Source: Rosa chinensis (taxonomy: Eukaryota; Streptophyta; Magnoliopsida; Rosales; Rosaceae). Taken from it: a stretch of DNA of 64,000 nt. This document shows, piece after piece, positions 11,480-44,385 of this stretch (position 1 is the stretch's first letter; every line of letters starts with the position of its first letter). Both the position numbers and the translations under genes were made by a program. Below the pieces are notes generated by a model that ran no database searches, was not told where the DNA came from, and worked only from the letters and a program-made list of their open reading frames with translations. The stretch is from assembly GCF_002994745.2 (NCBI RefSeq), contig NC_037092.1:21105001-21169000 (forward strand), in the 5' to 3' direction.

Positions 11480-12015
11480 TGATTACAGGCATTTCTATGC
11501 GAGTAATTGCATCCTAAATACTAGAATTAAGCTATTTTTCAAGACAATTATTATGTATTTAATCTATTTTTATTTATTTTGTAGTAAATAAAAAGAGTTG
11601 TGGATTTTGGAAGAAGTTGTGCCAAATTAGAGCAAAATGGAGTTAATTGGAGTTATCGACAAAAAGACGAAAAGTCAACAATGGTCAACGCGTCAATGCA
11701 AGCAAATATGTGAAAAAAACATTGGTTTGAGTTTGGGGAAAGCAATAGAAGAAAAAGAAAATTGAAGCAAAGAAAAGGGTGTATTAATTAATTAATCCTT
11801 GTATTAATTAATTAAATGATTAATTAATCAACCTCAGCCAAAATTTCACGTGTAGCAATTAAACCATAATTGCTTAATTAGCTTGAGTCAATTGAAGGCT
11901 AGCTAGCACGTGCCAGACCATCCTTCATTTCTCCTTGTCCACTCCTATGCTGCCACGTGGCAGCCCCATTCTATCCTTCCCTCTTCCTGACAAACAGCCA
12001 GCCATATATATATTA

Positions 12016-13781: not shown

Positions 13782-15061
13782 TATATATTAATTCCCTTCT
13801 CTAACCAAGGGAGAACCCTGGAGACCAACAGCCGCAGCACACCCCATTATTCATTATCCTCTCTCTTCTGCTACAGTAGCCACAACTCCATAACTCTCTC
13901 ACCCACTCTCCCATTTTCACTCACTCTTGCACATTAAAGTATTGGGCTCTTCTCATTCATCAAGGAAGATCATCAAGACCTTAATTTCATCTTGGGTAGT
14001 TACGAGGATTCAAGCTAGCTTAGTTTTCTTTGCTTTTTAGCATTGTTGAAATTAAGCAAAGCTTATCCTCTCTCTTCTCATCTATTTTAGTTGCACATGG
14101 TTTTGATGTTAAATCTTGTTTTAATTATGAGTGAGTAGTTTAATTTTGGGAGTTAGGGTTGTGAAGCCCTAACTCATCTTGTATAAATATTGATGCTTTA
14201 ATTTTAATAAATGCAATTTTCATTGTGTATGCTTTAAATCCGAATTTATTGGTCCTTAGAAGCATGTTTCTAGGCTTTGTCACCCTTTGAAATTATGTTG
14301 TGGGCAATTGTGATGAATAGATTGATAAATTGACAACTTATTGGTCTTGTTGCATCTAGGATTTAAGAGTGGTAACCATTAGCTAGCTTAATTGTAGCTA
14401 AGCTTGCTTGGGTCTCTATTATCTTGCACTCTAGGCCTCTAATTTTAGATATTACGGCCTTAACCGGCGTAATGCCTAAATTAGAGAGTTGATTGTGGCT
14501 CTAACCGGCATAATCGATACACCGAAAGGATAATTGGTTCAGTAGCCTTAACCGGTACTAGATAAGGGACTTGACACATCTAGGAAATGCATGCATTTGT
14601 GAAATTGGCGTCGATATTTGCAAGATAGTTAGTGTGAATCACCCGACACTCCCATGTTCTCATTAATTTGAAATCCGAATTTTAATTTCTTTCTTGATAA
14701 TTAGTTGTTTGCTTTTATTTTAGTTTGCATTTAATTTAGTTAATTCCCAATTCAAAACTCCCAAACAAAATTCTACCTTCCATTGTGCATAACTCATTTG
14801 GGCTACAAGTTAGTGGCTTTGATTAGGCTTAGTGTGAGCTAAGCCGAGCATTGCCGAGGCTTGGTGCCTTGTGAATATTATTTTATTTTATTTTTATTTT
14901 ATTTTTATTTTTCATTGAATGCATTTGAGTTACTCTACCGCCAATTACCTCGGTTAGGTCCAACACCTAATCCCCGAGGTACGATAATCAAGGTTTTAAT
15001 ACTTCCCTTACTTGACAACGATTCGTACGCTTGCGAGAGTTTTATGAGCCAAGTCACCCGC

Positions 15062-15717
15062 ATACAATCATCACAGACAACGGCACACAGTTCAATAACA
15101 AGGAACTCATATCTTTCGCCGCCAACCTGGGTACCAAGATGCGTTTTGTATCTGTCGCTCACCCCCAAACCAACGGCCAGGTCGAAGCGGCAAATAAGAT
15201 AATCAAGAAGCTGTTACAGAAGAAACTCAACGAGGCCAAGGGTTTGTGGGCGGAGAAACTCCCGGAAGTTCTATGGGCCATCAGAACGACCCCAACTTCC
15301 GCTACTGGTGAAACCCCCTTTTGTATGATGTTCGGAACTGAGGCTGTCCTGCCCATCGAGGTAACTCAACCAACCGCTAGGGTCGAAGGCTACTGCCCCG
15401 AAACCAACAGCGACGGCGTCAACCTTGACAGGGATCTCTTAGAGGAAAAACGACATAAAGCCCATCTGCACAACTTCCAGAACAAGCAACGGGTATCGTG
15501 TTTCTACAACGCCAGGGTCAAAGTCCGCAACCTTCAACTGGGGGACTGGGTAATGAAGGAAGTCATACCACCGCCAACGAAACTCCGCCCAACTTGGGAA
15601 GGTCCATACAAAATTGTAGAAGTCGTTAGCCCAGGCACCTTCTACTTAATGGATAAGGATGGCGTCACAACGACACACCCTTGGAATACCGAACACCTTC
15701 GGTATTACTACAAATAG
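15062..15717 (+). pseudogene. Tat element integrase, C-half
   Basis: Continues the integrase after the solo LTR: HTIITDNGTQFNNKEL holds the second catalytic Asp, and HPQTNGQVEAANKIIKKLLQ holds the catalytic Glu. The C-terminal DNA-binding region follows (KVRNLQLGDWV, LRPTWEGPYKIVEV), ending TEHLRYYYK and TAG at 15715. This segment has no internal stop, but it is cut off from the N-half. Confidence 0.93.
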
Positions 15718-24365: not shown

Positions 24366-27300
24366 TTACATGCCTATAACCAGAATCCAGAAGACCAACG
24401 ATTGGTGGCAATGTAAAATACCAATAGTGATATACCTAAGCCTGATTGGGATCACCGCCTCCCATATTCTTTGCAATGTACTGATTGTTTGTATAGAATA
24501 AGGTTCAACAACTCGTCCTCCTTCCGCTACTTTCTTGATTGAATGTCCGCTTTGACAAGCATATTTGACGGATTCAGAGAGTCGATTTAGCAGATTTACG
24601 AGAGCTATAACTTCATTTCGTTGCAGCTGCAGCTGCATATGCAAAGAAAAATGAGAGAGAAAGAGATGGTTCAAGTTCACCTACTCTAAAGAACTTGTTA
24701 AAGAAGGCAACTCAAACAAAGTCTAGATATTCAGCTGGAAAGCTATTGGAAAACCTCAAGCATAACCTGATCAATTGGTTCGGTATCTTTGCAAGTCAAA
24801 ACTGACAAATGGGTATTTAGATGAATAAGAAAACCTATGTTGCGAGATGAGTTTGATAAGAGAGCTGCAAGAACTTACAGGTTGATCTTGATGATTTTTA
24901 CCATCAACAGAAAAGAGGATCTTCAATGCAGTACCAATACCGAGAACTTGAAGCTTTCCCCAGAGCCGACATTTCTCACATCCCACACAATCCATTAATG
25001 CACTGAAATTTGAGGATGAAATTTTTAGAACACCGAATGACAAGAAGGTGATCAATGTTTAGTTCAACACAAAATATTAATTACTGAAGCAACTTCTCAC
25101 AGACAAACCTAATGTTTCTGAATTTCTTTTGAATTTGTTGCTTCAATTGTGGTCCGCTCCGACCTTTCCAGAGCTTTGCTTCATCAAACGGTAGGGGACA
25201 TGCAGCTTGGAGTTTAGGATTGTAAAGTAGCTGCCTCATCAAAGACTCTGTTCTCAGGTCTTCCTCATGATTACCTGTATCATACTCAGCCTGCTCCAAG
25301 TAATCTGCAGCCTACAAGATGTTAAGCCCATCATGTGGGACAATAAGAAAATTGATTACGCGGTACCAATACAGAAAAGATAGCAGAAAATGCTTACTTT
25401 TGTCACTGCCCGGAGAACAAAGAGGAATGCGAAGTACAAATTCTGAACACGATCTGGATATTTTAGAACGCGATCATGCATCAATTCCATGTTTTGACCC
25501 CACTGAAATTTATATGTGCAAAGGTCATATACAGCTCATATTGACTAAAGACAGTGACATAAATTCTTTTAGTTGTTATACCTTTACTAAAGTACTTTTT
25601 ATTCTCATTGTAGAAAATTTTCTGAAATCCTATGAATTTTCAATTTTGAAACTGCAGAAGATTATAGAAGAATGAACAATGCATGTGTTATGGGTAACAA
25701 ATAAGTTGATAGTTATGCTGATAACCCCTCAACTGGACAAATGAGATGAAAATGAGCAGGGAAAAGAAAAATAGTCACATGATATGAGGCAGAAGGAGAA
25801 CCAGATTGGTAATCTTGTCTAGAAGATAATCAGCAGCTATGTGGATTGAAATTGACGAGTGAAGACCCGATATTAATTTGTACAATACTCTTTGCTCCTG
25901 GCAAATGTCCTGAGATGAATCTGCAGAAGAGCAAAAGAAACAACACTGATACAGTTTTCAAGCAGGGCATATGTCATTTTGATATACTCAACCTAGCCTT
26001 CCCTCCATAAAGTTGTATCATGTCACCTTCACTGGAGTTGATTGGCTATACAAATATGAAAGCAATATCCAACATTTTAATGATAGAATATAGCAAGCAG
26101 AATAAGGATCCAATTTTTCCAAATAGATATACCAAAAGTTTCAACTCACATTTTGGGCAATTTTCAGAATAAACAGCATCCCATATCCTTCTTGCTGATG
26201 GACCAGTATAGCCAGTGTAACGTTCAGGGTTCAGTAGAAGGTTCACATATGTCATCTCATCTGCAGATCAGAAGTTAACAGAGTCAATCTCTGAACAACA
26301 TGATTAAAAATCAGTTATTTACTCCAACAAGAAATTTTTCATCGAGAGAAATGAACACAGAATAAAGACCGAGGCAGTTTTACATTCAGAATTTGTTTGC
26401 TACATATACCATAAACCATGATCTACATTCAATAAATGTGAAGATGCAAAATATTTAGTTCTGTCATTTAAAATGCGAGCCTATTGTCTTCATTGGTTTC
26501 TGATGTCTCTCATAATATAGCATATGCATTCCACACTAAATTATAAATAATGACTTTCACGTCTAAAATTCCAGTGTGTCAGTGTGTGTACTCCAGCTTC
26601 CAACAAATAAAATCTTTACTAAGGATGTTAATACTAGGAAGCATAAGATCAAAGATAATATTCAGTGAATTACCATTATCAGTCTCGTCATCATTTGTCC
26701 AAGGATTATCTGTCTCAATCCAGCCTCTGAATGCTCTACCGTCTAGAGTGCGGTCAACAGACCCCTGCAGCTTATCATCTTGACATACCAAAGTGTCGGA
26801 TGGAAGGCCACCGTGAAAGGGCCTCTTGAAAGGTTCCGGAAATTCATTTTCTGGGCATTCGCAGACGCTGCAGTCACGCAGGAGGCACATACCATCTTCA
26901 GTCCAGAAGGGACAGTCACACCACAGCTTGGCCTATCAAATGAACCAAGTACATAAGCTCCCACAAGGTAAACACAGAGACTGACAATATTACTAAAGCA
27001 GTACTATAATATGAGGAAGCACAACGTCAATAGAAAGTTCACATATTCACATATCAATTCTGAATTTCTTTTTTGTTACTGACGGCTAGAAATGTATGAT
27101 TATACCAGAACACCATGTAAAAATCTGGGATAAGTAAGGCAAATCACAGGAAATGTAGAAAGTTTGGTGCTTGCCTATTTCGGACACGCAAGTCTACAAC
27201 TTTTATGCAAAAAAGTCATACCACTTTACACAATGCTGTCAAGAATTACAATGAATCCAATTACGACTACCGTCTACTGAGCCCTCTCTAACCAGTGTAT

Positions 27301-27909
27301 TCCATTCAAACAAGTTCTGGGTATACGAGGTCATTAATCATTATGTGGCCCTCAAATCTCTAATGCAAGCACACATACACATAAGAACGAGTCAAAGTTA
27401 AAGAATTCATGTGACTAGTATCATTAACCCCTTGAAATGCTCAAAATAGCTCTTCACCTTGTGAATTAGATAGCCAAATGTGAATCAAACACAGTAATAG
27501 CAAAAACATCAAGAGGGCTGCTCAAGCAGCACACCTTAAAATATCGAAAAAACGGAGTTTTAACAATCTCTTGTAGCAGAGGATGCAACACCTCTGCATT
27601 AACACTGTCCACCGTTTCATAATCACAACAGCAGTCCTCATCAATGCCACTGTATTTCTTTGAATCCTACACACACACAAAAATAACTCAAAAATCAACA
27701 AAAGAAACCATGACAATGAACTCAACTACATGCACATCCGCACATCCAAGTCTTACCTGAGGACATTGGCAGGAACTGGGATTCTTGAAAAACAGAGAAA
27801 GGTTGAGTTTAGAATTAAAATCTCTGGTAGAGGTGAGAGCTATGGCTAATAAGACCACAACCACAGCACCCACTAAAACCCATCTCTTCACATTCTTCTC
27901 CTTCACCAT
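24366..27909 (-). CDS. ERO1: ERO1 endoplasmic reticulum oxidoreductin, 9 exons
   Basis: FAD-dependent thiol oxidase of the ER membrane/lumen that reoxidises protein disulfide isomerase and passes electrons to oxygen. Exons: 27909-27757, 27666-27535, 26926-26674, 26260-26150, 25920-25802, 25502-25398, 25311-25109, 25002-24879 and 24632 to the stop at 24366. All introns are GT-AG and the sum (1467 bases) gives 488 residues, near the usual plant length. A membrane anchor lies at about residues 9-27 ([16 protein letters not shown]). The shuttle cysteines are in [10 protein letters not shown] (CX4C) and the active site is CVGCEKC near residue 390. ATG 27909 is the first in frame. The C-terminal tail after the last conserved block is less certain; the last exon may splice again near 24450. 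No lesions were seen. Copy B lies upstream at 30309-33999. Confidence 0.92.
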
Positions 27910-28300
27910 CTCCAATTCCAGCAAATCCTCCTAAAATCAAGCATCAAAGATATCAATGTCTGCAACTACATTTGTATATATAAGACTTTTGAGTTCAACG
28001 TTAGGCTTTGATTTCGAAAGTCGAATTCAATTTAATAGCCAAACCCCCCATACAGAGCTAGAAACACAACTTACGCGCCAATGCTGTAGCGAAGGACTAA
28101 GAGATATAGTGACCGAGGCGAGAGGTAGAGACACGGAAGAAATGAATTGGGTAACTGACACGTGGTCGGAAGGGATTGGACGGTGTGACAGAAATTTCTT
28201 TTGTGCGAGTGGGTTTTGATAGTCTTGATTTGTCAACGTCCGGTAGTTAAGTCTGTCAACGGTGACGTGCTCGGGCCAATGGGAAAGCAGTAGCACCGTT
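27910..28300 (-). promoter_or_regulatory. ERO1 copy A promoter region
   Basis: A TATATATA-type box lies at about 27975-27983, about 65 bases before the ATG. A G-box (TGACACGTGG, 28156-28165) and a TGACGTG core (28263-28269) are bZIP-type sites; ER-stress bZIPs bind such cores, and ERO1 is known to respond to ER stress. In copy B the TATA box and the TGACGTG core are both changed, while the G-box is kept. The regulatory role is inferred, not shown. Confidence 0.45.
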
Positions 28301-29955: not shown

Positions 29956-30308
29956 CATTTTCGGTGAGATTTTCAGAAAAGTTCGGTGAGCGGTGACCAG
30001 TGACAGGAATTCGGAGGCTAGTGACTGAAATCCGAAATCCGAAATCCGACGGCCGAAATCAGGCGAAAGTTGGCCTGAATCTAGCGACCGATGATCGGAT
30101 TTTGGCGGCCAGTGACCGGGCTCCTGCGAAGTCTCCTATGCTCTCAGTAACAAAAGGGTAAAATGGTATTAGCTTCCATAATGCCTACTAATTGATAATT
30201 CGTTAGCAATTCATACTCCCTAGCTATCTCCACCTTGTTACATGCATGTAACCACAATACATAAGGGAAACTTATTGCTTGCAATGTACAACAGGAATAG
30301 TCACATAC

Positions 30309-33300
30309 CTAAGCCTGATCGGGATGACAGCCTCCCATAATCTTTGTAACGTGCTGATTGTTCGTATGGAAGGCAATAACACATCCTCCTTCCGCTACTT
30401 TCCTGATTGAATCACCACTTTGACGAACAGTTTCGACAGATTCAGAAAGTCGATTTAGCAGATTTACAAGAGCAATCACTTCATTTCGTTGCAGCTGCAA
30501 CTGCATATGCAAAGAAAAATGAGAGAACGAGACAGTTCATGTTCACATATACTAACCAACTTGTTAAAGAAAAACATTTTGACCGGATCAATTGGTTCAC
30601 TAGTTTTCCAAGTTAAGCGAACAAATGGATCTTGGAACAACCAATCATGTCTGGTTTTTAGAGCAATAAGAAAACCTATGTTGGGAAATGAGTTTCATAA
30701 TAGAGCTGCAAGAACTCACAGGTTGATCTTGATTATTTTTACCATCAACAGAAAAGAGGATCTTCAATGCAGTACCAAGACCAAGAACTTGAAGCTTTCC
30801 CCAGAGCCAACACTTTTCACATCCCACACAATCCATTAATGCTCTGAAATTTGTCAATGAATTCATTACGTTATGACTCCTTAAAGCAAGGTGGTAAATG
30901 ATTTCCTTCAGTATAAAATAGTAATCGGTGGAGAAAATTCTCAGATGCAAACCTAATGTTTCTGAATTGCTTTTGAATTTGCTGCTTCAACTGTGGCCCA
31001 CTTTGACCTTTCCAGAGCTTTGCTTCATCAAACGGTAGAGGACATGCAGCTTGGAGTTTAGGATTATAGAGTAGCTGCCTCATCAAAGACTGTGTTTGCA
31101 GGTCTTCCTCATGATTATCAGTATCATACTCAAGCCTGCTCTAAGTTATCTGCAGCCTATAATATGTAACAATAAGTTCAACGTGGACAAATTGAACATG
31201 CAAGTATGGGAAGCAGAAAAGAAACGCTTGCTTTTGTCACTGCTCAGAGAACAAAGAGGAATGAGAAGTACCATACGATCTGGATATTTTAAAACACGAC
31301 CATGCATGACCTTCAGATTTTGACCCCACTGAAAGTTATATGCTCAAAGGTTAAATACTTTCTCAACTTACCTAAAATCAGGAAACTGCATTCATCTTTT
31401 CTTTCTACCAAAATGCAAGTTTTTCTTCATAATAGAAAGAGTTCTAACTTCTAATCCGAAGAAGTGTCATCATCCAACCAAGTCATTACTGAAGAATGAA
31501 CAATGCCTATATTATGGATTATTAATTTGGCAGAAATCTTCAAAAACTTTATAGTTGCCACTCAACTGGACTTAAAAAAACAAAATGAAATGGACAAAGA
31601 AAAATAGTCACATGATATGAGGCAGAAGGAGAACCAGATTTGTGATCTTGTCCAGAAGATAATCAGCAGCTATATGAATTGAAATGGAGGAGTGAAGACC
31701 AGATATTAGTTTGTATAATACTCCTTGCTCCTGGCAAATGTCCTGAGTTGCATGTGCAGAAGAGCAAACAAACAACAATGAATTAAAAATTTGGCATAAC
31801 AAAATTATAAACATCATTGATACACATTCGAGCTTTGAAGCAGGTATACTCAATATGAAACAAAGATATAGCATTTTAATGATAAAAGGCTACAAGCAGT
31901 CAAATTGTCACAAATAGTGATCTAACAGAATATTAAACACACATTTTGGGCAATTTTCAGAGTAAACAGCATCCCATATCCTTCTAGCCGATGGACCTGT
32001 GTAGCCAGTGTAACGTTCAGGGTTTAGTAGAAGGTTCACATATGTCATCTCACCTGCAGAAAAGAACTTAAGAGTCAATCTCCATTCAATATTAGTACAA
32101 ATATTCATTTTCCTACAACAAGAAAGAGCATGTATCAAAATTGAAATAAATGAACAAGAAACAATGGCTGAGGAGAATTTCTACATTCAAGATTCATCTA
32201 CTATATATATATGCCATAAATCATGAACCTAATTTCAACCAAATTGTGGGATGAACTCATGAAAGCGATGAATAAACAATTTGGTTGAAATTGTAAGCCT
32301 ATTATGAACTCATGACTTCTATAGATTTGGATGTAAGCCAATTTATCTTCATTACTTTCTGATATCTCTTAAAATGTAGCATGCAATTTCCAAAATATAT
32401 CATAAATAACGACTTTTTGAATTCTGATCCAAAATGCCAATGCACATACTCCAGATTCCAACAAACAACAATAAAAGACTAAATTACAGAACTTCAGACT
32501 GCGGAGCACAAAATGCAAGAGTTATATTAAGTAACTACCATTATCATTCTCATCATCAATTATCCAAGGGTTATCTGTATCAATCCAGCCTCTGAAAACT
32601 CTACTGTCTAACGTGCGGTCAACAGAACCCTGAAGCTTTTCCTCTTGACAAACCAAACTGTCAGATGTAAGGCCACGGTGCAAGCGCCTTTTAAAAGGTT
32701 CTGGAAATTCGTTTTCTGGGCATTCACATATGCTGCAATCCCGCAATAGGAACATGCCATCTTCAGTCCAAAAGGGACAGTCACACCACATCTGCAAGGG
32801 CCTTTTAAAAGGTTCTGGAAATTCGTTTTCTGGGCATTCACATATGCTGCAATCCCGCAATAAGAACATGCCATCTTCAGTCCAAAAGGGATAGTCACAC
32901 CACAGCTGGCCTATCATATTTACCAAGTATTTGAGCTCCCAAAAGGTAAACAGAAAGAAGAGACAAAATTACTAAATCACTTCTAATTAAATCACTACTA
33001 TAGCATGAGGAAGCACGATGTCAATGCCATATTCATATTTCAATGCTGAGCTTTTTCCTTGCAGACAGCTAGAAGTGTAAGATCATACAAGAATGCATGT
33101 CAAAACATTGCAAACCACAAATTTGTTGTTTTTTTTTTTCCTATTTCTAGTACATAGGTCTACAGCTTATATCCACAAAAGGGCATGTCCATACCACTCC
33201 ATAGGAAAGTATCGAGAATTGTAGATCAATATCAAAAAATTTGTCCAAAAAAAGAAGAAGAAGGAAACTATGGAGAACTATTGATCAAACTACCACTAAA

Positions 33301-33999
33301 TCACTAATGTCTGCAGAGGCCTTGCTAGCAATTGCATCCCATTCAATAATCAAACCACTTCAGAAAAGTCTTGAGCTTTTAATAACTAATTAAAAGAACA
33401 TATCTAATTTGGACTGTAAGATCAAAAATTAATATTCTTAATCTTTCTTTTATATCCTTTCTACCTTTCAATTTCTTAAACCTTAGAGTTGTGTGGCCCT
33501 CAACTTCCTCTAATGTCAGCTTAGACTTTCAGCCCACAGACACATAAAAATGCTGGAAATTAGCTATTCACCAAAATGCGACAGCCAAATGTAAAATAAA
33601 AATTCTTCTAATAGCAAAAAAATTAAGCGGGCTCAAGCAGCACACCTTAAAATATCTCGGAAAAACTGAGTTTTTAACAATCTCTTGTAGCATTAACACT
33701 GTCCACCGTTTCGTAATCACAACAGCGCGCAGTCCTCAACAATGCCGCTGTATTTCTTTGAATCCTACACTCACGCAAGAATAAATCAAAAAGCAACAAA
33801 AGAAACCATGATAATGAACTCAATTACATGCCCATCCAAATCTTAGCTGAGGACATTGGCAGGAACTGGGGTTCTTGCAAAACAGAGAGAGGTTGAGTTT
33901 AGAATTAAAATCTCTGGTAGAGGTGAGAGCTATGGCTAATAACACCACAACCACAGCACCCACTAAAACCCATCTCTTCACATTCTTCTCCTTTACCAT
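30309..33999 (-). pseudogene. ERO1 copy B, broken duplicate
   Basis: All nine exon equivalents are present, from an ATG at 33999 to about 30309. Lesions compared with copy A: the first donor GT became CT (after CQCPQ, about 33845). Exon 2 lost about 20 bases and gained small insertions. Exon 3 (about 32903-32541) carries an in-frame 114-base tandem duplication. The first shuttle Cys is Phe in both units (GMFLLRDC). Exon 6 lost about 8 bases and its donor is GC. Exon 7 has a 1-base insertion. Exon 8 has R to W after the CVGCEKC motif. The last exon is frameshifted. The TATA box is also lost and a virus sits about 240 bases upstream. A functional oxidase is very unlikely. Confidence 0.92.
32681..32908 (-). 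repeat. 114-bp tandem duplication inside ERO1-B exon 3
   Basis: Two direct copies, 38 codons each, running from [19 protein letters not shown] through [12 protein letters not shown]. The copies differ by only a few bases, so the duplication is younger than the A/B split. It repeats the shuttle-cysteine segment. Confidence 0.93.
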
Positions 34000-34443
34000 C
34001 CCCAATTCCACCAAATCTTCCTAAAATCAAGCATCAAAGATATCAATGTCTGCAACTACAGTTGCACATAGAAGACTTATGAGTTCAACGTTAGGCTTTG
34101 ATTTGGAAAAGTCCAATTCAATTTAATAGCCAGACCCCCCATACAGAGCTAGAAACACAACTTACGCGCCAATGCTGAAGGAAGGACTGAGAGAACTAGT
34201 GACCGAGGCGAGAGGTAGAGACACGGAAGAAATAAGGGTTAACTACAAAGCACTTACTTGGGCAAACAGCTAGAAGCTGTTTTAGCTACTCATAACTGAT
34301 TTACAAACACTTACTTGTAATAGAAAGCACACTGTGTCCACAGACGGACTGCTACTGCTACTGAGATATGCTGATCTTAGAGATTTTCGAATATAGAACT
34401 AATGCCTTTTTCTTCGAATGCCTTCTAAGGGAAGCTAAAGCTC

Positions 34444-34452
34444 CTTATATAG
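34444..34452 (-). promoter_or_regulatory. 35S-like TATA box of the pararetrovirus
   Basis: CTATATAAG, embedded in CTCCCTATATAAGGAGC on the minus strand, resembles caulimovirid pregenomic RNA promoters. It lies about 210 bases after the polyprotein stop. In the integrated copy a transcript from here would leave the viral DNA after about 180 bases and run toward ERO1-B, which is on the same strand. Confidence 0.65.
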
Positions 34453-34662
34453 GGAGCGGAACTCAAATTACAATTCAAAACAACAAAATGTACAGAACGA
34501 CTCCGTGATTTCCTGCTTTCCTTAGTGCTCCTGCTGGTGGAGGTCGACCGGGGAAAAAGCAGATTCCTTTAGGTGAAATGTTTTTCACCTGCTTTTTGAA
34601 AAGCAAAAGTCACTTTTAGGAAAAATCCAAAAGGACTTTCGGTGTTTTCTACACCTGCTGCT

Positions 34663-37600
34663 TCACATGTTCTCGTCGGTTTCTGAATTGTGACCAAGGA
34701 CAAACAAGTCGTTATCTGCCTGGGCCATCCTTACTGTTGTTGCATTGTCTTCGACATCTGTATCAACATACATCTTGTAGTGGTTGTCAGTTTCAAGTTT
34801 TTCCACCCATCGTAAGCATGCCAGTGTCGAATCTATCTCTTTTCTGGTAAGAGATAGAAACAAGTCACTGCTGACTACGTCAGGATGATCGTAAGCAGTG
34901 ATGATAGTTTTCTCTCCTGCTGCCAGGAAGGTATTGTAGGTATCCTCAGAGATGATCTTTTTGATATATTCTAGAGTCATGGCTTTCATCCAAGGGATGC
35001 TTGAGTTTGGTTGGCCATTGTACCCTACACAGGCTGGTTGAAGATATTTCCTTTGAATAATTCTTACATAATGATAAGGAGGAATATATTCAACTTCACC
35101 GTTTGCCTTCTGGATCCATTCTGGAGGAGTGGATCTGAACTTCAGTCTAAGCATACAGTCATTTTTTCTTACATTTTTGACTGTATTAACAATGATAGGC
35201 GGCAAACCTTTTAGATCATCATTTGTTTTAGTCCACAGATTATGGACAAAACCATTTTCAACAAGCCAGAGCTTGTGTTCTTGAGGATGTTCACTCTGAA
35301 CATTAACCAGGTATCTTCCAACATAAGGACCTGAAACAATAAAGAGAGTTGGAGGAACTAGGTCTTCTGGATTATGTCTTCCTATCAGACTGTGGAATTC
35401 ATGCCAGTCTGATTCATTAAGTGCCATGACAGGAACTCTAGCACTTTCTGGACTTTCAAGGAAGAGAATTTTTTCTTTTCTTACAGCACTCTGCTGTATA
35501 TGACTTTCTTCAAATTGTGGTCTGGCGTTCTCATATAGTTCTTCAGCTAGTGCAAAGAGTGCCGGGAACACTAGACCACTGCTTCTTTCTTGGAAAGCAA
35601 ATAAGAGATTATCTAAGATTGCCTTCTGGTGATAAGCTAGTCTCCTGCCAGTTCTGAACACAGGAGTGTCAAAAGTTCTTAATTCATAATTAAAAACATT
35701 TATGACTCCAGTTGGAGTTGGTCTGCTTTTTGGCAAAGCAGCAGCCGTCAACGGTCTTGATGAGCCTTTACCGTCTGCCGTTTGAGACGGGCTAGCCAAT
35801 CCTTTACCCTGGGATTGATCAGTTGAGGCTAGTCCTTTAGGACTTAGCAGAAACCTTTTAAGAACTTTTTCTTTGGTTTCCATAGGATCTTCTTGATGCT
35901 CATGTTCTTTCCCAGTCCTTCTGCTTCTGGGATTACGACCTTCGTCGTCTTCTCTTTGGCTAAACATTGCCATTTCCCTGGTCAATGCGTCTGGAAGATA
36001 ATTCTTGTTTCCTGCAATTAATTCAACATTATAATCATATTGGTTAAGAAATAATTGCCAGTTTGCTAATCTTCCTCTATCAGCAGCTTTATCAAGTTTA
36101 AAATTTTTGAAATTCTTTACTCTGGCACAATCGGTGCGGACAGTAAAGGTTTTTCCAAGAAAAGCTGGTGAATTTAAAATCGTTTTCTTGACAGCCAAAA
36201 TTTCTTTTTCCCCTGTGGGATAATTCAGTTCTGCAGGGCTGAACTTGCCACTACAAAATTTGCAGATCTTTTCAATGTTAGTTCCAGGCGCTCTTGCCAG
36301 AACAACACCGGACCAGTAATTATCGCTCGCATCTGTCTGGAGGATAATTTCATCATTCTCTTCTGATTGTTGGAGAGGAGGGAGGTTTTTGCAGAGATTT
36401 TTTATCTGCTTCACAATCTTTTCATCATCTTCTGTGAAGTTCCATTTTCTTTTGGAACTTGTCTTAGGAGATAACATCGCTGTTAACCCTGAGATTTTAG
36501 GGATGAAATCTCTCCCATAATTTATGACACCAAGGAATCTCTCTAGACTCTTAGCATCAGGAATTTTGTCTGGGAACTTCCAGATCTTTTCAAGAATATG
36601 AGGTTGGAGTTTTATTACTCCATTTTTGATGTTTATCCCTAGGAAATCAACTTCATCAAGGATAAAGAAGATTTTCTTTTCACCTAGGATGATTCCATGC
36701 TGAACTATCAGCTTTACTACCTCATGGAGGTGTTTCATGTGTTCTTCTTTGTTTTTGGAGAAGACTAGGATGTCATCTATGTAGACGACGCAAAACTCTG
36801 CCACATGCTTGAAGATGTTGTCCATCTTTCTTTGGAAGATTGAGGGAGCTTGCTTTAGACCAAAAGGCATTACTAACCATTCATAATGGCCTTGTGGTGT
36901 TCCAAATGCAGTGAGAGGTATGCTCTCAGGATGCATCTTGACTTGCCAGAAACCCGACTTTGCATCGAATTTCGAAAAGACTTTGACTCCTCTGAGCTGG
37001 TTGATCAGTACTCTTACTTGAGCAATTTGATAACCATCTTTGACAGTCTTCTTGTTGACATCTCTGTAGTCAATCACCATTCTAGCTTTTCCTCTTAGAG
37101 TTTCTGCATGATTTCTCACGTAGAATGCTGGAGCATGATGAGGGCTAGTGGAAGGTTGAATCAATCTCTTGTTCAGGAGATCTTCAATATCTTTTCTGAA
37201 TTCCTTTTGATCTTCCTCTTTGTAATGAGGAATGGCTTTGACATGGCAGATAGCATTCATGTCATGCAATTTCAATTCACAGACCACTGGGTCTTTTTCC
37301 CAAAACTTTTGAGGATTTGTATCCACATTCTGCTCGAGTAGTTTCTTGATTTTTTCAAGAGTGGGAATTTGCTGAGACTCAAGCTTATTCTGAAAGTGCT
37401 TGAGGTTGTGTTCATGGATGAAACTAGCTTCTTCATCTTCACTGGCTTCTTCTTCTTCTTCTTCTGAAGATTCTTCAACAAGCAATTCTTCTTGTTGTTT
37501 GATTTGGAGTATGGGCTCGAATTTGGGTTTGTAGGGGGGAAGATCACCACTATTCTGTTGCGATCTCTGATAGTGAGTAGTAAAACCGGGACCTACCACA

Positions 37601-40600
37601 CTGAATGCATGTGTGAGTCGGTCTGCCCAGAACACCCGTCCTCCTTTCCTGAAGCCTATCGCTTCTTCATCCTGAATAAATCTTTGTTGGAGAATAAAAT
37701 CATTTCCTAACAGGAAATCAGATCCTTGGCCTTCTGACTGCCAAACATTCTGGATGATAAATGTTCCTCCACCAATGGTGATATGAACATTTTTTGCTAC
37801 TTTCTTCATGGTGAGATGGCTTCCATCAAATGTAACACCAGTAGCTGACTTTTTCTTATCTTCTTTCCAGAGTTCATCTGGAATTGCAAATCTCTTTGCA
37901 ACAGTAAAACCTGATCCATTATCTACAAAGGCATGTAGATGATATTTCCTGTGATCAGGGAATTTGAGTCCGATCTCTATGTAGTTGCTGTATCTACTTG
38001 TAGAGACGACTTTCGATTGGTGAGGCTCATTTTCTTGAGTTTGCTCTTTTGGAATGAATGGTTTACATTCTTCTGAAACATTTTCCTGCATGGGTGATTT
38101 ATCTTCACTATCATCCCAGTTTGTAGGAATTATCTCTTTGATGTCTGGATCACTGAACCAGGACGGAGGATCATATCTGACTTTATAATCATACTTGCCA
38201 GAAGGTTGGCCAAGTAGATCCCATGTGTCAGTAGCCTCTTGTCTTTCTAAGAGATGTACCGTTTCTGGTGGTTTTACCAGTTCTACATTTTCTGGTATTT
38301 CAACCAGTTCAATATCTTCATCGACTTTTTCTTTATCGACGATTTCTTCCTTTTTCGAGGAAGACGGTTCCATGGTTTCCTGGAAAAGAGTTTCAATTTC
38401 TTTTGCCTTTTGCTCGGCAAAATACTCTTCATATTCTTGCTTAACCAATTGGCTGACAAGACCATTCTTGGTTTTTCTTCTCGCTTCAGCTATGAAGCAT
38501 TCTTTGTGATAAGTCTTCTTAGACTCTTCACAAAACATTGGGAGACCATTCTTTTCGTGACAAAAGCAGTAGTCACAAACGAATGTACCAGGGTTCACCT
38601 GATAAGAAGACATGAAGGATTCTGTCTTGCTTTCTTCCCAGTTTTTTATTCTCAAAACATTCAGTTGTCTAGATTCGAAGTACTCTACTTCAGAATCAAT
38701 CTCAGACTCTTCTGATGAACTTTCTTCTTCTCCAGACCAGGCAGAGTAGACTGACCTGTCGTCATCTTCATCATCAGAATAGGCTATTTCGTAGCCTTTC
38801 ATGTTTGCTACCTCTACTATTTGCTCATATTCTTCAAAGAGAGCCTTAGTAGATCTTTTACCCTTTTCCGGACATTCATTTGCATAGTGTCCTTCAGCTT
38901 TACACAACCAACATCTGCAAGCTTTCTTGCTAGGCTGTTTATGCTGATGAGTATTCTTCTTTTTGAAGAATTTCTTTTTAGGATCTTCATCCTGTTGCTT
39001 TTTGTAATTGGAACTTCTCTTGAATTTCCAATTCTTCTTCTGATTACTCTTTTTAAATTTTTTAGAGTAATATTTTTCTTTTTTCTTCTTTCTGTGGAAT
39101 TTGGAGTCATGGCATCCCCAGTTTGTGGGCATATCTAATATTCCATAACAGAAATTTTCAACTCCTTTGAGTTGTTTCTTGGCCATCTTAGCTCTAAGAT
39201 TGGCTTTGCATTGCTCTTTCAGTAATTGCCGGATTCTGTCGGCAATCCCTCCAACTGAAAATCTTTCAATTGGTTTTTCAGCTATGCTTTCTCTCACAGC
39301 TGTTCTCCATGGTTCAGGGAGTTTTCTGTGCAACAGATTAACTAGATCAGTATTTTCTAGTTCACCAATTGTACAGTAGTACTCTTGAAACTCATTCAAG
39401 TATTCTTCGAAATATCTCATGTCACAGATTTTAAGAGCATAGATATTCGATTTTGCCGTTTCTTTGGCTTTTTCACTCAGATTTGAAAGATCTCCACAGA
39501 ACTGATCATACAGTGGTACTGCAAAATCATACGGAGATTTTGAATTTTTGATTTCTTCCAGCCAGTCTTTTCCTCTGGCAGTTTCTTTGAAAGATAGGTA
39601 GTACTTTTTTGCTACTCCAGTGAGAGTAGTTTCATAGTACACCTGCAGATCTGGTGCTTCAAATTTGCCAAGGGTGAGTGCAGAAGCCATCATCAGGCTA
39701 TCTACCCATTGGTCAATGGTTTTTCTTTTGTCTAGACTCTTGTCTAGATTTAACCATATGCCATAGTTCGTGATCGGAACTCTAGGCAGATTGTCCTCTG
39801 GGACAAATCTTTGAGAATTTCTTTCTCCTTTTTTACCCGTGGGGGCTTTCTGAAATGGGAGTTTTATTTCTTTTTTTTCTCTGCTAATGAAAGTTCTAGA
39901 GCTTTCTCCTTCTTCCATTTCAATATCTTGATAAGGAAAGACTTTTCTTGTCTTTCTGAATTTGTATTCTTTCATTTCTTCGATTAGTTTTTCTAATCGT
40001 TCAGGATTTTCGCAATTCCCAGCTTCTTCATAAAGATCATAGAGCTTCTTAGTTCTGAACATATGGACTGGTCTGTTCAGATCAGCTTCCAATTCTTCTT
40101 CAGAAATTGGCTCTTCAATAGTGGGTTTTATACCACTGACACTAGCTTCTCTAGTGCTGTAGCTTCTTCTTAGAAGATTGTTCTTGTTTATCCTGAGATT
40201 CTCAGGACTGACATCACTTCTTCTGTGATTGTCAAAATTAAGACTAATTTCTCCAGTCTTTCTACTCTCGTAGATCTTTGCTTTTGCTCTTTCCGGCTGC
40301 TTCTTTGGACCGGATAATTTCCATTCAAGAGGAAAAGTTACTTCATTCCGAGTAACTTTGTGGATTTGTTGTGAATGGTTCTTCTGATTGGTGAGGAATC
40401 CAGTAGTAAGACCTGGGATATTTGTTATCCTTGTCTTAGGGGCTACTGTAGTACTCATCAATTTATAGTATATTCTATATACTATAGCAAGTTCTTGCAT
40501 ATCTTCTTTCATGGATATACCATCTGTCTTGACTCTCAGTCTGAGACAATGAGCTGCATCTTTCAAGCTGGTGGTGAAGTTGGGGAAGCAGTTGAAATAT

Positions 40601-41445
40601 GCTACTTGGTCGCATAAGGATGCTTCGAGTGTTCCCAACAGACTAGCTTGGAAGTCTATTAACCTGTTGTCCTGTAGGACACATAGGACCGAACAGTTTA
40701 TGCCTTCACGTGCAAGCAGATTTATGCCTACTTGGACTGCTCCAATATGCATAAATTGATATTTTTTTGCTTGAGCTCTAGCAACTTCTGAAGGAGTGAT
40801 TAATAGAAGATCAGTCTCTCCTCCTGCTGTAGCTGGAGTTGTAATTTCCAGAAGTTTAAAATAATGGCTATCCATTAAATCAAACTTTCCCCTTTTGTAG
40901 ATTTGTTTAAAATCTAACTTTGGGATTGAGGAATTTTTTACCTCTTGTTCGATTTCGTTGAATTCGAATTCTTCAGCATTTAGGAGCTGTACTCCCTTCT
41001 TTTTCCCAAAGATGCTTAACATCTTCATTTCTCTATTTTCCGGATTTTCATACCGGATACTAGTCTGACTAGTAGATGGTTCCAGAAAAATCATATTTGG
41101 AATACGATTTGTGTCTGGTTTTTCTAACGGTTTGAATCCATTAGTTTTCTTTTTTACTGTAGGCACTTTCTTGTCCTTCAGTATATTTTTCATGATATCC
41201 AGCGTTTTTTGCTGTTCATTGACTTTTCTACTGACAACTGTCAGCTTTTCTTCTTCCACTTTTGGAAGTTCTTTGATATAATCCAGTTTGTTTTCCAATC
41301 TTTCTAATTGGTGGATTATAGCAGGTAATTTTTCTAGATGAGTTTGACATCTAGATATTTCTAGTAACAACTTCTGATATTTCTCATCAGAAGATTTCAA
41401 TAGAGAATTTATTTTTTCTAATAACAATTCTGACATTGTCCCCAT
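34663..41445 (-). CDS. Petuvirus-like polyprotein (MP-CP-PR-RT-RH), 2260 aa
   Basis: The ATG at 41445 is 33 bases after the primer site. Domains in order (approximate residues): N-terminal coiled coil 5-110; 30K-type movement protein 185-350 (GAVQVGINLLAREG, then LIDFQASLLGT); coat protein 540-860 with a Lys-rich stretch and zinc knuckle CWLCKAEGHYANEC near 842; a second Cys/His cluster 956-985 (CDYC...C...HKEC); aspartic protease near 1172 with VDNGS; reverse transcriptase 1400-1650 with YIDD near 1553; RNase H 1705-1825 (TDASD); then a tail of about 430 residues whose last 340 look like a folded domain I cannot name. The length is close to the petuvirus single ORF. No stops or frameshifts. 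Whether it is expressed is unknown. The protease has Asp-Asn-Gly where Asp-Thr/Ser-Gly is usual. Confidence 0.93.
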   Translation of the reverse strand: MGTMSELLLEKINSLLKSSDEKYQKLLLEISRCQTHLEKLPAIIHQLERLENKLDYIKELPKVEEEKLTVVSRKVNEQQKTLDIMKNILKDKKVPTVKKKTNGFKPLEKPDTNRIPNMIFLEPSTSQTSIRYENPENREMKMLSIFGKKKGVQLLNAEEFEFNEIEQEVKNSSIPKLDFKQIYKRGKFDLMDSHYFKLLEITTPATAGGETDLLLITPSEVARAQAKKYQFMHIGAVQVGINLLAREGINCSVLCVLQDNRLIDFQASLLGTLEASLCDQVAYFNCFPNFTTSLKDAAHCLRLRVKTDGISMKEDMQELAIVYRIYYKLMSTTVAPKTRITNIPGLTTGFLTNQKNHSQQIHKVTRNEVTFPLEWKLSGPKKQPERAKAKIYESRKTGEISLNFDNHRRSDVSPENLRINKNNLLRRSYSTREASVSGIKPTIEEPISEEELEADLNRPVHMFRTKKLYDLYEEAGNCENPERLEKLIEEMKEYKFRKTRKVFPYQDIEMEEGESSRTFISREKKEIKLPFQKAPTGKKGERNSQRFVPEDNLPRVPITNYGIWLNLDKSLDKRKTIDQWVDSLMMASALTLGKFEAPDLQVYYETTLTGVAKKYYLSFKETARGKDWLEEIKNSKSPYDFAVPLYDQFCGDLSNLSEKAKETAKSNIYALKICDMRYFEEYLNEFQEYYCTIGELENTDLVNLLHRKLPEPWRTAVRESIAEKPIERFSVGGIADRIRQLLKEQCKANLRAKMAKKQLKGVENFCYGILDMPTNWGCHDSKFHRKKKKEKYYSKKFKKSNQKKNWKFKRSSNYKKQQDEDPKKKFFKKKNTHQHKQPSKKACRCWLCKAEGHYANECPEKGKRSTKALFEEYEQIVEVANMKGYEIAYSDDEDDDRSVYSAWSGEEESSSEESEIDSEVEYFESRQLNVLRIKNWEESKTESFMSSYQVNPGTFVCDYCFCHEKNGLPMFCEESKKTYHKECFIAEARRKTKNGLVSQLVKQEYEEYFAEQKAKEIETLFQETMEPSSSKKEEIVDKEKVDEDIELVEIPENVELVKPPETVHLLERQEATDTWDLLGQPSGKYDYKVRYDPPSWFSDPDIKEIIPTNWDDSEDKSPMQENVSEECKPFIPKEQTQENEPHQSKVVSTSRYSNYIEIGLKFPDHRKYHLHAFVDNGSGFTVAKRFAIPDELWKEDKKKSATGVTFDGSHLTMKKVAKNVHITIGGGTFIIQNVWQSEGQGSDFLLGNDFILQQRFIQDEEAIGFRKGGRVFWADRLTHAFSVVGPGFTTHYQRSQQNSGDLPPYKPKFEPILQIKQQEELLVEESSEEEEEEASEDEEASFIHEHNLKHFQNKLESQQIPTLEKIKKLLEQNVDTNPQKFWEKDPVVCELKLHDMNAICHVKAIPHYKEEDQKEFRKDIEDLLNKRLIQPSTSPHHAPAFYVRNHAETLRGKARMVIDYRDVNKKTVKDGYQIAQVRVLINQLRGVKVFSKFDAKSGFWQVKMHPESIPLTAFGTPQGHYEWLVMPFGLKQAPSIFQRKMDNIFKHVAEFCVVYIDDILVFSKNKEEHMKHLHEVVKLIVQHGIILGEKKIFFILDEVDFLGINIKNGVIKLQPHILEKIWKFPDKIPDAKSLERFLGVINYGRDFIPKISGLTAMLSPKTSSKRKWNFTEDDEKIVKQIKNLCKNLPPLQQSEENDEIILQTDASDNYWSGVVLARAPGTNIEKICKFCSGKFSPAELNYPTGEKEILAVKKTILNSPAFLGKTFTVRTDCARVKNFKNFKLDKAADRGRLANWQLFLNQYDYNVELIAGNKNYLPDALTREMAMFSQREDDEGRNPRSRRTGKEHEHQEDPMETKEKVLKRFLLSPKGLASTDQSQGKGLASPSQTADGKGSSRPLTAAALPKSRPTPTGVINVFNYELRTFDTPVFRTGRRLAYHQKAILDNLLFAFQERSSGLVFPALFALAEELYENARPQFEESHIQQSAVRKEKILFLESPESARVPVMALNESDWHEFHSLIGRHNPEDLVPPTLFIVSGPYVGRYLVNVQSEHPQEHKLWLVENGFVHNLWTKTNDDLKGLPPIIVNTVKNVRKNDCMLRLKFRSTPPEWIQKANGEVEYIPPYHYVRIIQRKYLQPACVGYNGQPNSSIPWMKAMTLEYIKKIISEDTYNTFLAAGEKTIITAYDHPDVVSSDLFLSLTRKEIDSTLACLRWVEKLETDNHYKMYVDTDVEDNATTVRMAQADNDLFVLGHNSETDENM

Positions 41446-41477
41446 TAAGGAGGGGTTCTCCTTGAGCTATTTTACAA

Positions 41478-41489
41478 GCTCTGATACCA
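41478..41489 (-). other. Met-tRNA primer-binding site of the pararetrovirus
   Basis: TGGTATCAGAGC on the minus strand complements the 3' end of plant initiator tRNA-Met, the primer used by all caulimovirids. It sits between the 106-codon ORF and the polyprotein, roughly 700 bases after the TATA region when the genome is viewed as a circle. Confidence 0.88.
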
Positions 41490-41502
41490 GTGATGTGCGG
41501 AT

Positions 41503-41823
41503 CTAACCAATGCTCAAATAATCAAGAGGTTTTTGTTCCTCTTCCAGAACTTCTAAGAGATTATCTATCTCCTCTTCTATTCTATATATTCTAGTCTGTA
41601 GTCTATAGATAATATCCCAGTAATTGGGAGAATCTCTACTAAGATTATCTCTATAGGTTTTTAATTTTCTCAATTTCTCTCTCTCCTTTTGCAGTTCCTT
41701 AGTAGTAATTTTACAAATAGCAATCAACTCAAGTCTATCAATAATCGAAATTATGAATGGTGAAAATAACCGTTTACCTTCGAGTATAGAGGATGGATTT
41801 ATACCTGCAATATGGTTAAACAA
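41503..41823 (-). CDS. Small coiled-coil ORF in the pararetroviral leader, 106 aa
   Basis: Open from an ATG at 41823 to a stop at 41503, ahead of the primer site. The middle is strongly charged and heptad-like (KELQKEREKLRKLKTYRDN, YRLQTRIYRIEEEIDNLLEV), suggesting a coiled coil. I do not recognise the family. Some caulimovirids have small coiled-coil virion-associated or aphid-factor proteins, but position and length alone do not prove kinship. It could also be a long regulatory upstream ORF. Its intact state matches that of the polyprotein. Confidence 0.6.
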   Translation of the reverse strand: MFNHIAGINPSSILEGKRLFSPFIISIIDRLELIAICKITTKELQKEREKLRKLKTYRDNLSRDSPNYWDIIYRLQTRIYRIEEEIDNLLEVLEEEQKPLDYLSIG

Positions 41824-42170
41824 ACAAATTCAAAAGCATGGGCCCACTACGCTCCGTCAATTTTATTTTTACCCAAGGAAGAGATAACTATTAAGGAAAG
41901 TAAAAGACTTACTAAAGACAAAATGTCCTTAAGTGTAAACTTTTGTCCTTAGATGTATAAAATCAAAAGTGGAGGAGTTATTTGTGTTTTGGACTTCTAC
42001 TAGGGGGGTCTTTGTAGTTTGCTAAAGAAATAAATAGGCTAACTGACACGTGGTTGGAAGGGATTGGACAGATGCGAGTGGGCTTTGATAGTCTTGATTT
42101 GTCAACGTCCGTTAAGTCTGTCAACGATGACGTACTCGCGCTAATGGGAAAGCAATAGCACTGTTTTACT

Positions 42171-43000: not shown

Positions 43001-43224
43001 AAAGGGAATTGTTGCTTGCTTACTAGTTATGAAATTGACCTAGCCTTCCCATGCCAGACAATTTTAATTTTATTTAAATCTTTAAATTTAGTCATTTTTT
43101 CAAAATTTTATTTTATTTTAGCAATTACAAATAGGAGTGATTTTAAAACTAGGGTAGATATTGCCGAAAGGAAAACACAAAAAATAGCTATTGAACTCGG
43201 TGAGTTGAAAGGTTATATTTTCTA

Positions 43225-43730
43225 GGGAAAATTTTGCAAACAGTACACCAAGTAAAGGACACTAATAATTTTTATACGCAAAGTTTCAAACCAAACATTT
43301 CGGTACACGAAATCTGAAACCCGACCCACTATCAGTACACGACGTCATTTTTTGACACCAAAATGTCCATTATGCCCTCAGTTCTTCTTTTTTTTAAATA
43401 ATTTTTTTTCTGTTATTTTTTTTTCCTTCGTTTATAAATGACTCGAGTCATTTTTTTCCTGTTATGCAAGGTGAGGAAGGCGGCGTTGGAAGCGAGGGAG
43501 TGAGCCCGGAAGAAGAAAGAGATAAAACGAAGGAAAAAAAAATAACAGAAAAAAATATTAAAAAAAAAAAGAACTGAAGGCATAATGGACATTTTGGTAT
43601 CAAAAATTGACGTCTTGTACTGATAGTGGGTCGAGTTTCAGATTTCGTGTACCGAAATGTTTGGTTTGAAACTTTGTGTATAAGAATTATTAGTGGTCTT
43701 TACTTGGTGCACTGTTTGCGAAATTTACCC
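43225..43730. mobile_element. Foldback MULE-type MITE with 9-bp TSD
   Basis: Arms of about 215 bp, left GGGAAAATTTTGCAAACAG and right, reverse-complemented, GGGTAAATTTCGCAAACAG. A perfect 9-bp TSD, TATTTTCTA, lies at 43216-43224 and 43731-43739. The arms share CATAATGGACATTTTGGT text. The loop of about 80 bp (43440-43520) is GC-richer and non-coding. Confidence 0.92.
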
Positions 43731-44385
43731 TATTTTCTAGTTCCAAAATAGCTACTATTATAGATATTGTGGTTTTTCTTATCTCCATTGTTTGAATGAG
43801 GTGCATATTTCCAATGTTTTAAGTTTCTCCGAAACTGCAGAAATTTCCGTCAAAATTTTCTTAAATTTGAAGTACCGAAACGAAATTCATATGCTATATT
43901 ATTTCCGTCAGGAGTTTTCCGAAATTTTCTGTACATTTCCGCGAAATTCTTAGTTTCAGAAATATCTACACACAAAAAATATATTAAAAAATTCACACCG
44001 AAATTTTGTTTGAAATTTCTCTGAAATTTCTGTGAAATTTGTTTGTCACTGACAAAATAGGGAAAGTCGTCCAAACAGTGTCTGAACTTTTCCAGACTAT
44101 TAATTTTCATACTTATACTTTGAAAATATCGAAATGGTACCTGAAAATTTAAGCCAGATCCAATTTTCATACCTGGCAATAGTAATATCGTCAACGGCGT
44201 TAACTTTTAAGGGGTAAATCCGGTACTTCCGAAACAAAAAACTTTTTTTTTTGGGAGTTAACCTTCTTCTTCCAGCTGCTTTCGAATTCTTTTCTTTCTT
44301 TCTCACAATTGATTCACTTCACTTATTCTTTCTTTCTTCTTCTTCTTCGAATTGCTACTTCATCAAACCAAGGACAAAGTTCTCT

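What the first reader, a model, noticed from the sequence alone, without database searches (positions are those of the whole stretch)
34235..42024. Nearly genome-length endogenous petuvirus-like pararetrovirus with an unbroken polyprotein
The insert holds one permuted viral genome equivalent with a 2260-codon frame free of stops, a Met-tRNA primer site and a TATA region. Most endogenous caulimovirids are broken and rearranged, so an intact frame suggests recent integration or selection. The link to petuviruses rests on the single-polyprotein layout and domain order (established); recent age is inference.
Basis: partly seen in the sequence, partly recalled or inferred. Interest (0 to 1): 0.92.

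Follow-up and report, generated by a model that had tools for sequence, protein, structure and literature searches.

The report
Rose virus that inserts like transposon
This stretch of the rose genome is one of many copies of a plant DNA virus; the copies examined begin and end at the same two places and are nearly always flanked by a nine-base repeat of the target site, so this virus likely enters chromosomes through a DNA-transposon-type enzyme rather than by accidental DNA repair.

Summary
The 2260-codon frame, primer site and TATA box are real. The element (window 34236-42024, minus strand) is a caulimovirid, but not a petuvirus: its RT-RNase H groups with strawberry relatives, fitting the published Zendovirus group, and grouping with petuvirus-side sequences is rejected. 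It is probably not a single-ORF virus either: a conserved, mostly AUG-free 108-codon frame precedes the polyprotein.

The main result came from the window's own genome (Rosa chinensis). It is not a randomly permuted viral genome. All 26 copies read at both ends begin and end at the same two places (the left end in two diverged versions), with short inverted termini; 24 of 26 have an exact 9-bp target-site duplication (0 of 650 mismatched pairings). That is the signature of Mutator-type DNA transposition. In sampled copies MP, CP, RT-RNase H, C-terminal domain and upstream frame are under purifying selection (dN/dS 0.04-0.15), and copies are mosaics, so a replicating, moving virus probably seeded them, not dead transposon cargo.

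The window copy sits in the promoter of a decayed ERO1 gene, has lost about 0.41 kb near its right end, and is recent. Unsettled: which enzyme inserts it. Genome-wide searches for a partner transposon did not complete.

The parts
34236..42024 (-). the element: zendovirus-type caulimovirid with fixed ends (window copy 7789 bp, internally deleted near its right end)
   Evidence: ends and flanks compared with 25 other genome copies
42025..42033 (-). 9-bp target-site duplication, left copy (TTATTTCTT)
   Evidence: the tandem ERO1 paralogue gives the empty site
34227..34235 (-). 9-bp target-site duplication, right copy (TTATTTCTT)
42010..42024 (-). left terminal repeat TAGCA-AACTACAAAG
   Evidence: 11 of 15 positions match the right end (inverted)
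34236..34250 (-). right terminal repeat, inverted (GGGTT-AACTACAAAG on the + strand)
34256..34257 (-). scar of a ~0.41 kb non-coding deletion in the window copy
   Evidence: 417-436 bp in 20 of 20 other right ends against 21 bp here
41506..41829 (-). upstream AUG-free frame, 108 codons
   Evidence: 0 ATG against mean 6.04 in shuffles; 0 of 5000 shuffles match both features; dN/dS 0.145
41478..41489 (-). Met-tRNA primer binding site TGGTATCAGAGC
   Evidence: match to initiator tRNA recalled
34663..41445 (-). polyprotein ORF, 2260 aa
40450..40821 (-). movement protein domain PF01107
   Evidence: E 1.5e-20; dN/dS 0.038
39142..39465 (-). caulimovirus coat protein domain PF22909
   Evidence: E 1.4e-9; dN/dS 0.057 over CP+zinc knuckle
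37555..37989 (-). A3 aspartic protease PF02160
   Evidence: E 3.5e-18
36628..37095 (-). reverse transcriptase PF00078
   Evidence: E 7.3e-38; dN/dS 0.049 over RT-RNase H
36037..36438 (-). RNase H PF17917/PF17919
34666..35958 (-). lineage-specific C-terminal domain, about 430 aa, function unknown
   Evidence: 15 of 15 database hits are Rosaceae proteins or unnamed records (a length-limited search); no Pfam or PDB match for the window sequence; dN/dS 0.079
34444..34451 (-). viral TATA box (TATATAAG)
42049..42067 (-). ERSE-type promoter motif of the host ERO1 copy, cut off from its gene by the insert
   Evidence: motif name recalled
30300..34226 (-). decayed host ERO1 copy downstream of the insert
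   Evidence: Pfam ERO1 in 4 of 5 exon pieces; lesions against the paralogue
24369..28179 (-). tandem ERO1 paralogue without insert (empty-site control)

Best explanation
This is one rose copy of a zendovirus-type pararetrovirus whose DNA sits in the chromosomes with two fixed ends and 9-bp target-site duplications, so it was likely inserted by a Mutator-type DNA transposase acting on the virus's short inverted ends, and not by accidental repair. Shown: fixed ends, inverted termini, 9-bp duplications in 24 of 26 copies, AT-rich targets, many loci, purifying selection on MP, CP, RT-RNase H, the C-terminal domain and the upstream frame, and mosaic copies. Inferred: a moving, reverse-transcribing virus seeded the copies. 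Inferred: in its circular DNA the two ends meet in the leader, and a transposase (most likely a host Mutator-like enzyme in trans, possibly the lineage's own C-terminal domain) joins them to AT-rich DNA with a 9-bp stagger. Inferred for this copy: it is recent, landed in the promoter of an already decaying ERO1 gene and lost about 0.41 kb of non-coding sequence.
For: Left ends: 37 of 41 non-self matches listed start at query 115-130, the element's left end (40 of 763 candidates were scored). 19 of 19 fetched left ends hold the same terminal sequence beside flanks that differ by eye. Right ends: 20 of 20 stop at the same sequence, and 6 more do. Duplications: exact 9 bp in 22 of 26 copies by a fixed script, 24 of 26 when the left end may shift by one base (13 of 13 in subfamily A, 11 of 13 in B); 0 of 650 cross-pairs match; the 22 are 95% A+T against 65% in the flank. 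The 26 are the window and 25 of 39 non-self right-end matches listed. MULEs are distinguished by 9-11 bp duplications (PMC3310237, passages). Selection: dN/dS MP 0.038, CP 0.057, RT-RNase H 0.049, C-terminal 0.079, upstream frame 0.145. RT-RNase H is gap-free and stop-free in 18 of 20 copies. Mosaicism: one copy is 82% identical to the window in the leader frame, 99.8% in MP and 96.9% in RT-RNase H.
Against: No transposase was seen in the element, and no partner transposon could be sought genome-wide (pattern searches unanswered, last). The inverted termini are short (11 of 15 and 9 of 15 positions), while MULE TIRs are typically 100-500 bp. 2 of 26 copies lack an exact duplication (7 of 9 by eye, and none); two others are pure T or A runs. 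Ends were not tested in other Rosaceae. Pieces of single copies are broken: frame-shifting indels in MP 1, CP 2, C-terminal 1 and RT-RNase H 1 of 10, stops in MP 1, CP 1, C-terminal 2 of 10. The circular intermediate is inferred.
Confidence: 0.75

Rival explanations
1. Pack-MULE: a non-autonomous Mutator element once captured a dead viral genome, and the copies are pure DNA-transposition products.
For: Fixed ends, inverted termini and 9-bp duplications; nearly identical copies at unlinked loci.
Against: dN/dS of 0.04-0.08 across MP, CP, RT-RNase H and the C-terminal domain, and segment-wise mosaics. Dead cargo would drift to dN/dS near 1.
Confidence: 0.12
2. The virus carries its own integration enzyme, the lineage-specific C-terminal domain, which cuts with a 9-bp stagger.
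For: The domain is fused to the polymerase, found only in Rosaceae hits and unnamed records and under selection.
Against: No similarity of the window sequence to a Pfam or PDB family; the structure prediction failed (pLDDT 37.7); no transposase motif recognised.
Confidence: 0.2
3. Accidental end-joining of a permuted circular genome, as assumed for caulimovirids.
For: The general view in print (PMC9794742 and PMC10377300, passages).
Against: Same two end points in 26 of 26 copies read and exact 9-bp duplications in 24; no left end within 400 bp after 20 of 20 right ends.
Confidence: 0.02
4. The insert drives or is driven by ERO1: a promoter swap co-opted by the host.
For: The ERO1 ERSE motif now precedes the viral leader and ORF; the viral TATA box points into the ERO1 5' exon.
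Against: This ERO1 copy looks like a pseudogene: a lost splice donor, three frameshifts and a 114-bp exon duplication. If insert and gene had decayed together, no hit in the five-times larger viral ORF would have P about 8e-4, so the gene was probably dead first.
Confidence: 0.04

Closest known systems
Zendovirus (proposed Caulimoviridae genus; PMC5766536, PMC9794742, passages)
   Same: Host range in Potentilleae and Roseae, clade A side of the RT tree, 10 identical RT copies in Rosa chinensis in print; strawberry relatives share the polyprotein layout.
   Different: In the passages seen, counts rest on the RT and integration is described as illegitimate recombination; fixed ends, duplications and the upstream frame are not mentioned there.
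Petuvirus (PVCV, Citrus endogenous pararetrovirus)
   Same: One large MP-CP-AP-RT-RH polyprotein.
   Different: RT grouping rejected; conserved upstream frame here; PVCV copies form tandem arrays (PMC10377300, passage), none seen here. An integrase-like core was once reported for PVCV (title cited in PMC10741241).
Vaccinivirus (recalled: blueberry fruit drop-associated virus)
   Same: Best named viral match by RT-RNase H, 52% identity.
   Different: Exogenous virus; no fixed-end insertions known to me (recalled).
Mutator-like elements and Pack-MULEs (PMC3310237, passages)
   Same: 9-bp duplications, A+T-rich targets; one printed tomato duplication, TTTTAAATT, equals one found here.
   Different: Short inverted termini; no transposase seen; a selected viral genome as content.
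Teratorn (piggyBac-herpesvirus fusion; PMC10175614, passages)
   Same: A whole virus moving as a DNA transposon.
   Different: Herpesvirus with its own transposase; here a reverse-transcribing virus and no transposase seen.
Geminivirus-like transposon (PMC3198968, passages)
   Same: A plant-virus-like sequence amplified with terminal inverted repeats.
   Different: Only a Rep-like gene with transposase genes, 37-bp TIRs and no obvious duplication.

Membership tests
Caulimoviridae | MP, CP, aspartic protease, RT and RNase H; Met-tRNA primer site; no LTR, no integrase | tested here: met
Caulimoviridae | no proviral stage (descriptive trait, PMC10377300) | tested here: inconclusive
   fixed ends and 9-bp duplications suggest regular integration, but a life-cycle stage is not shown
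Zendovirus | RT at least 60% identical to the Fragaria/Rubus/Rosa cluster | tested here: met
   73-75% to Fragaria polyproteins over RT-RNase H; up to 93% to a partial Rubus protein
Zendovirus | groups with the published reference sequence | not testable with these tools
   the reference sequence is in supplements that were not available
Petuvirus | RT-RNase H groups with petuviruses | tested here: not met
   AU p 0.0107 with Citrus endogenous pararetrovirus and 12 unnamed plant proteins; PVCV not held
Petuvirus | single large ORF (PMC5902531, passage) | tested here: inconclusive
   a conserved upstream frame argues against; its translation is not shown
Ty3/gypsy (Metaviridae) | LTRs, integrase, RT among Ty3 | tested here: not met
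   best solved match 8r0s (recalled as CaMV) E 5.8e-109 against Ty3-G 2.2e-59
Mutator superfamily | 9-11 bp target-site duplication | tested here: met
   24 of 26 exact 9 bp
Mutator superfamily | long TIRs, typically 100-500 bp | tested here: not met
   about 15-bp imperfect ends
Mutator superfamily | MULE transposase in the element, or a partner with the same ends | not tested
   none in the Pfam scan of the ORF or in 104 kb scanned for the ends; genome-wide searches unanswered
Pack-MULE | unselected captured cargo | tested here: not met
   dN/dS 0.04-0.15

The most novel reading that the evidence does not exclude
The zendovirus lineage is a virus-transposon hybrid: a plant pararetrovirus that moves and reverse-transcribes as a virus and, as a regular part of its life, inserts its genome by Mutator-type DNA transposition through inverted ends in its leader. 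It would be the first reverse-transcribing virus to do so and the first caulimovirid with a true proviral stage.
Probability: 0.55. Interest if true: 0.95.

Novelty: new variant of a known kind. Interest (0 to 1): 0.88.

Why it matters
How integrase-less caulimovirids come to fill plant genomes is an open question: papers read here call integration illegitimate or unknown, and say that boundaries of endogenous copies are hard to define. A lineage with fixed ends and 9-bp duplications makes the mechanism directly testable. It would also add a second class of virus-DNA transposon merger beside Teratorn, and could explain why one caulimovirid group is so abundant and intact in roses and strawberries.

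Tried and rejected
Petuvirus placement: rejected by tree and AU test. Ty3/gypsy: rejected. Random permutation opened at a leader hairpin: my first reading of the terminal inverted repeat, dropped once other copies showed the same ends. A long-range fold joining the two leader parts: not significant, 12 of 60 shuffles as strong. ERO1 promoter co-option: weakened by the pseudogene lesions. C-terminal domain fold: prediction unusable, so not searched; profile comparison of this domain with the C-terminal pieces of five other polyproteins gave nothing. IMG/VR relatives: none confirmed in two scans. Non-viral elements with the same ends: none beside the element itself in 104 kb scanned; the genome-wide search did not complete.

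Rows dropped: four short rows from the RT set; the Ty3 outgroup and four long rows, among them a Cryptomeria protein that had joined the window's clade (99/96); copies with net frame-shifting indels from dN/dS; only pairs with dS above 0.05 were summed. Of the 20 right ends, one (L068) was not paired with a left end; 8 of the 19 left ends were not paired with a right end.
Full report
What is there. The minus strand holds a 2260-codon ORF at 34663-41445, which composition alone would leave stop-free with a chance near 10^-70.6. Searched in pieces, it carries MP, caulimovirus coat domain, a sub-threshold zinc knuckle, A3 protease, RT and RNase H, in that order. A Met-tRNA primer site and a TATA box flank it. 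No LTRs and no integrase were seen. The last ~430 residues match no Pfam or PDB family; all 15 hits of a length-limited database search are Rosaceae proteins or unnamed records.

Host and kin. The best C-terminal hit is a Rosa chinensis protein on a 70,290,800-bp contig. That is the exact length of contig C7 in the window's own assembly, so the host is R. chinensis. Strawberry polyproteins of 2186 and 2130 aa share the layout from MP to the C-terminal domain (in the former MP matches only in part). In the RT-RNase H tree the window and seven strawberry-type rows form one clade (100/100). The clade A split is 100/97, and grouping with 13 petuvirus-side rows is rejected, p 0.0107; only one of these 13 is a named virus, and PVCV was not held. 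With Pinus nigra virus 1 added, the unrooted tree puts the clade next to clade B (94/83), so its depth within clade A is not settled. In an earlier tree a Cryptomeria protein joined the clade at 99/96. The best named viral match is Vaccinivirus, 52%; the best solved structure is 8r0s, which I recall as CaMV RT. Host range and RT identity fit the published Zendovirus group, for which 10 identical RT copies in R. chinensis are in print (PMC9794742, passages).

A second frame. Upstream of the primer site lies a 108-codon frame; from its start to the polyprotein there is no ATG, against a mean of 6.04 in shuffles, and 0 of 5000 shuffles match both openness and ATG loss. Across ten genome copies it has no frame-shifting indel, nine of ten have no stop, six have no ATG and four have one, and dN/dS is 0.145. 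AUG-cleared upstream ORFs serve leaky scanning in badna- and tungroviruses (PMC5902531, passages); that it works so here is inference.

Fixed ends. The window's own genome was searched with the left end and the right end; the tool scored only the best 40 candidates each time. Of 41 non-self left matches, 37 start at the window copy's left end. That alone could reflect the query, so flanks were fetched. They differ from locus to locus by eye, yet 19 of 19 left ends hold the same terminal sequence. 20 of 20 right ends run 417-436 bp beyond the window copy's deletion point and stop at the same terminus. Twenty-six copies have both ends read: the window and 25 of the 39 other right-end matches. 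22 of 26 show an exact 9-bp direct repeat at the scripted boundary. Two more show it when the left end is shifted by one base; of the last two, one matches 7 of 9 by eye and one shows none. Two of the exact ones are pure T or A runs. Pairing left and right flanks of different copies gave 0 of 650 matches. The duplications are 95% A+T against 65% upstream. Subfamily A (13 copies with the window) is exact in 13 of 13. Subfamily B, whose first ~70-90 bases are diverged, is exact in 11 of 13. The termini pair as inverted repeats at 11 of 15 (A) or 9 of 15 (B) positions. No right end is followed by a left end within 400 bp (0 of 20).

Meaning. A 9-bp duplication with fixed inverted ends points to a transposase-type reaction. 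MULEs make 9-11 bp duplications (PMC3310237, passages), LTR elements 4-6 bp (PMC12440569, passages). If this were dead cargo in a MULE, its genes should drift. Instead dN/dS is 0.038 for MP, 0.057 for CP, 0.049 for RT-RNase H and 0.079 for the C-terminal domain. RT-RNase H is gap-free and stop-free in 18 of 20 copies. Some pieces are broken: frame-shifting indels in MP 1, CP 2, C-terminal 1 and RT-RNase H 1 of 10, stops in MP 1, CP 1 and C-terminal 2 of 10, as expected of copies decaying after insertion. Copies are mosaics of lineages (and C1:17.66M has a subfamily-B left end with an A-type RT). So a moving, reverse-transcribing virus most likely seeded them. Whether a host Mutator-like enzyme or the lineage's own unknown domain does the joining is open.

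This locus. The insert separates an ERSE-type promoter motif (name recalled) from its ERO1 copy; a tandem ERO1 paralogue shows the empty site. The occupied ERO1 copy has lost a splice donor and has +4, -8 and +1 frameshifts and a 114-bp exon duplication. Equal exposure would make an unhit viral ORF unlikely (P about 8e-4, with an assumed 1350-nt gene target), so the gene was probably dying before a recent insertion. A promoter exchange is drawn in the sequence, but its effect is untested.

Literature. Searches for pararetrovirus or Caulimoviridae with target-site duplication, terminal inverted repeat, Pack-MULE or transposase showed no report of this. These were listings; one search listed 15 of 263. 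Of the papers listed I read passages of PMC10175614, PMC12440569, PMC3310237, PMC10741241 (one section whole), PMC5718144 and PMC3198968. Papers read in passages state illegitimate recombination (PMC9794742), NHEJ or a possible hijacked integrase (PMC10377300), or unknown mechanism (PMC10175614). Most subscription papers, and bioRxiv preprints, were not searchable.

Noticed in passing
window 24369-28179 and 30300-34226: Tandem ERO1 genes on the minus strand: one open at the exons checked, one decayed and split from its promoter by the virus.
   Followed up: partly
window 34235-34420: Two GTAAGT splice-donor-like sites and a 3-codon AUG ORF lie in the viral leader just upstream of the host ERO1 5' exon; a chimeric transcript is possible.
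   Followed up: no
protein P0012 (Rosa rugosa): An annotated B3-domain protein begins with a fragment of the zendovirus C-terminal domain, possibly a virus-host fusion gene or an annotation artefact.
   Followed up: no
window 6468-15714: A broken Ty3/gypsy-type retrotransposon (gag, RT, RNase H, integrase pieces).
   Followed up: partly
window 43223-43732: Inverted repeat with 199-nt arms, 89% complementary, 112 nt apart: a MITE-like hairpin close to the insert.
   Followed up: no
G000 C1:17660303-17660706 and its left window: A copy with a subfamily-B left end but A-type RT (99.7%), a likely recombinant.
   Followed up: partly
protein P0148: A caulimovirid-like RT protein carrying dUTPase and viroplasmin domains by precomputed Pfam.
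   Followed up: no
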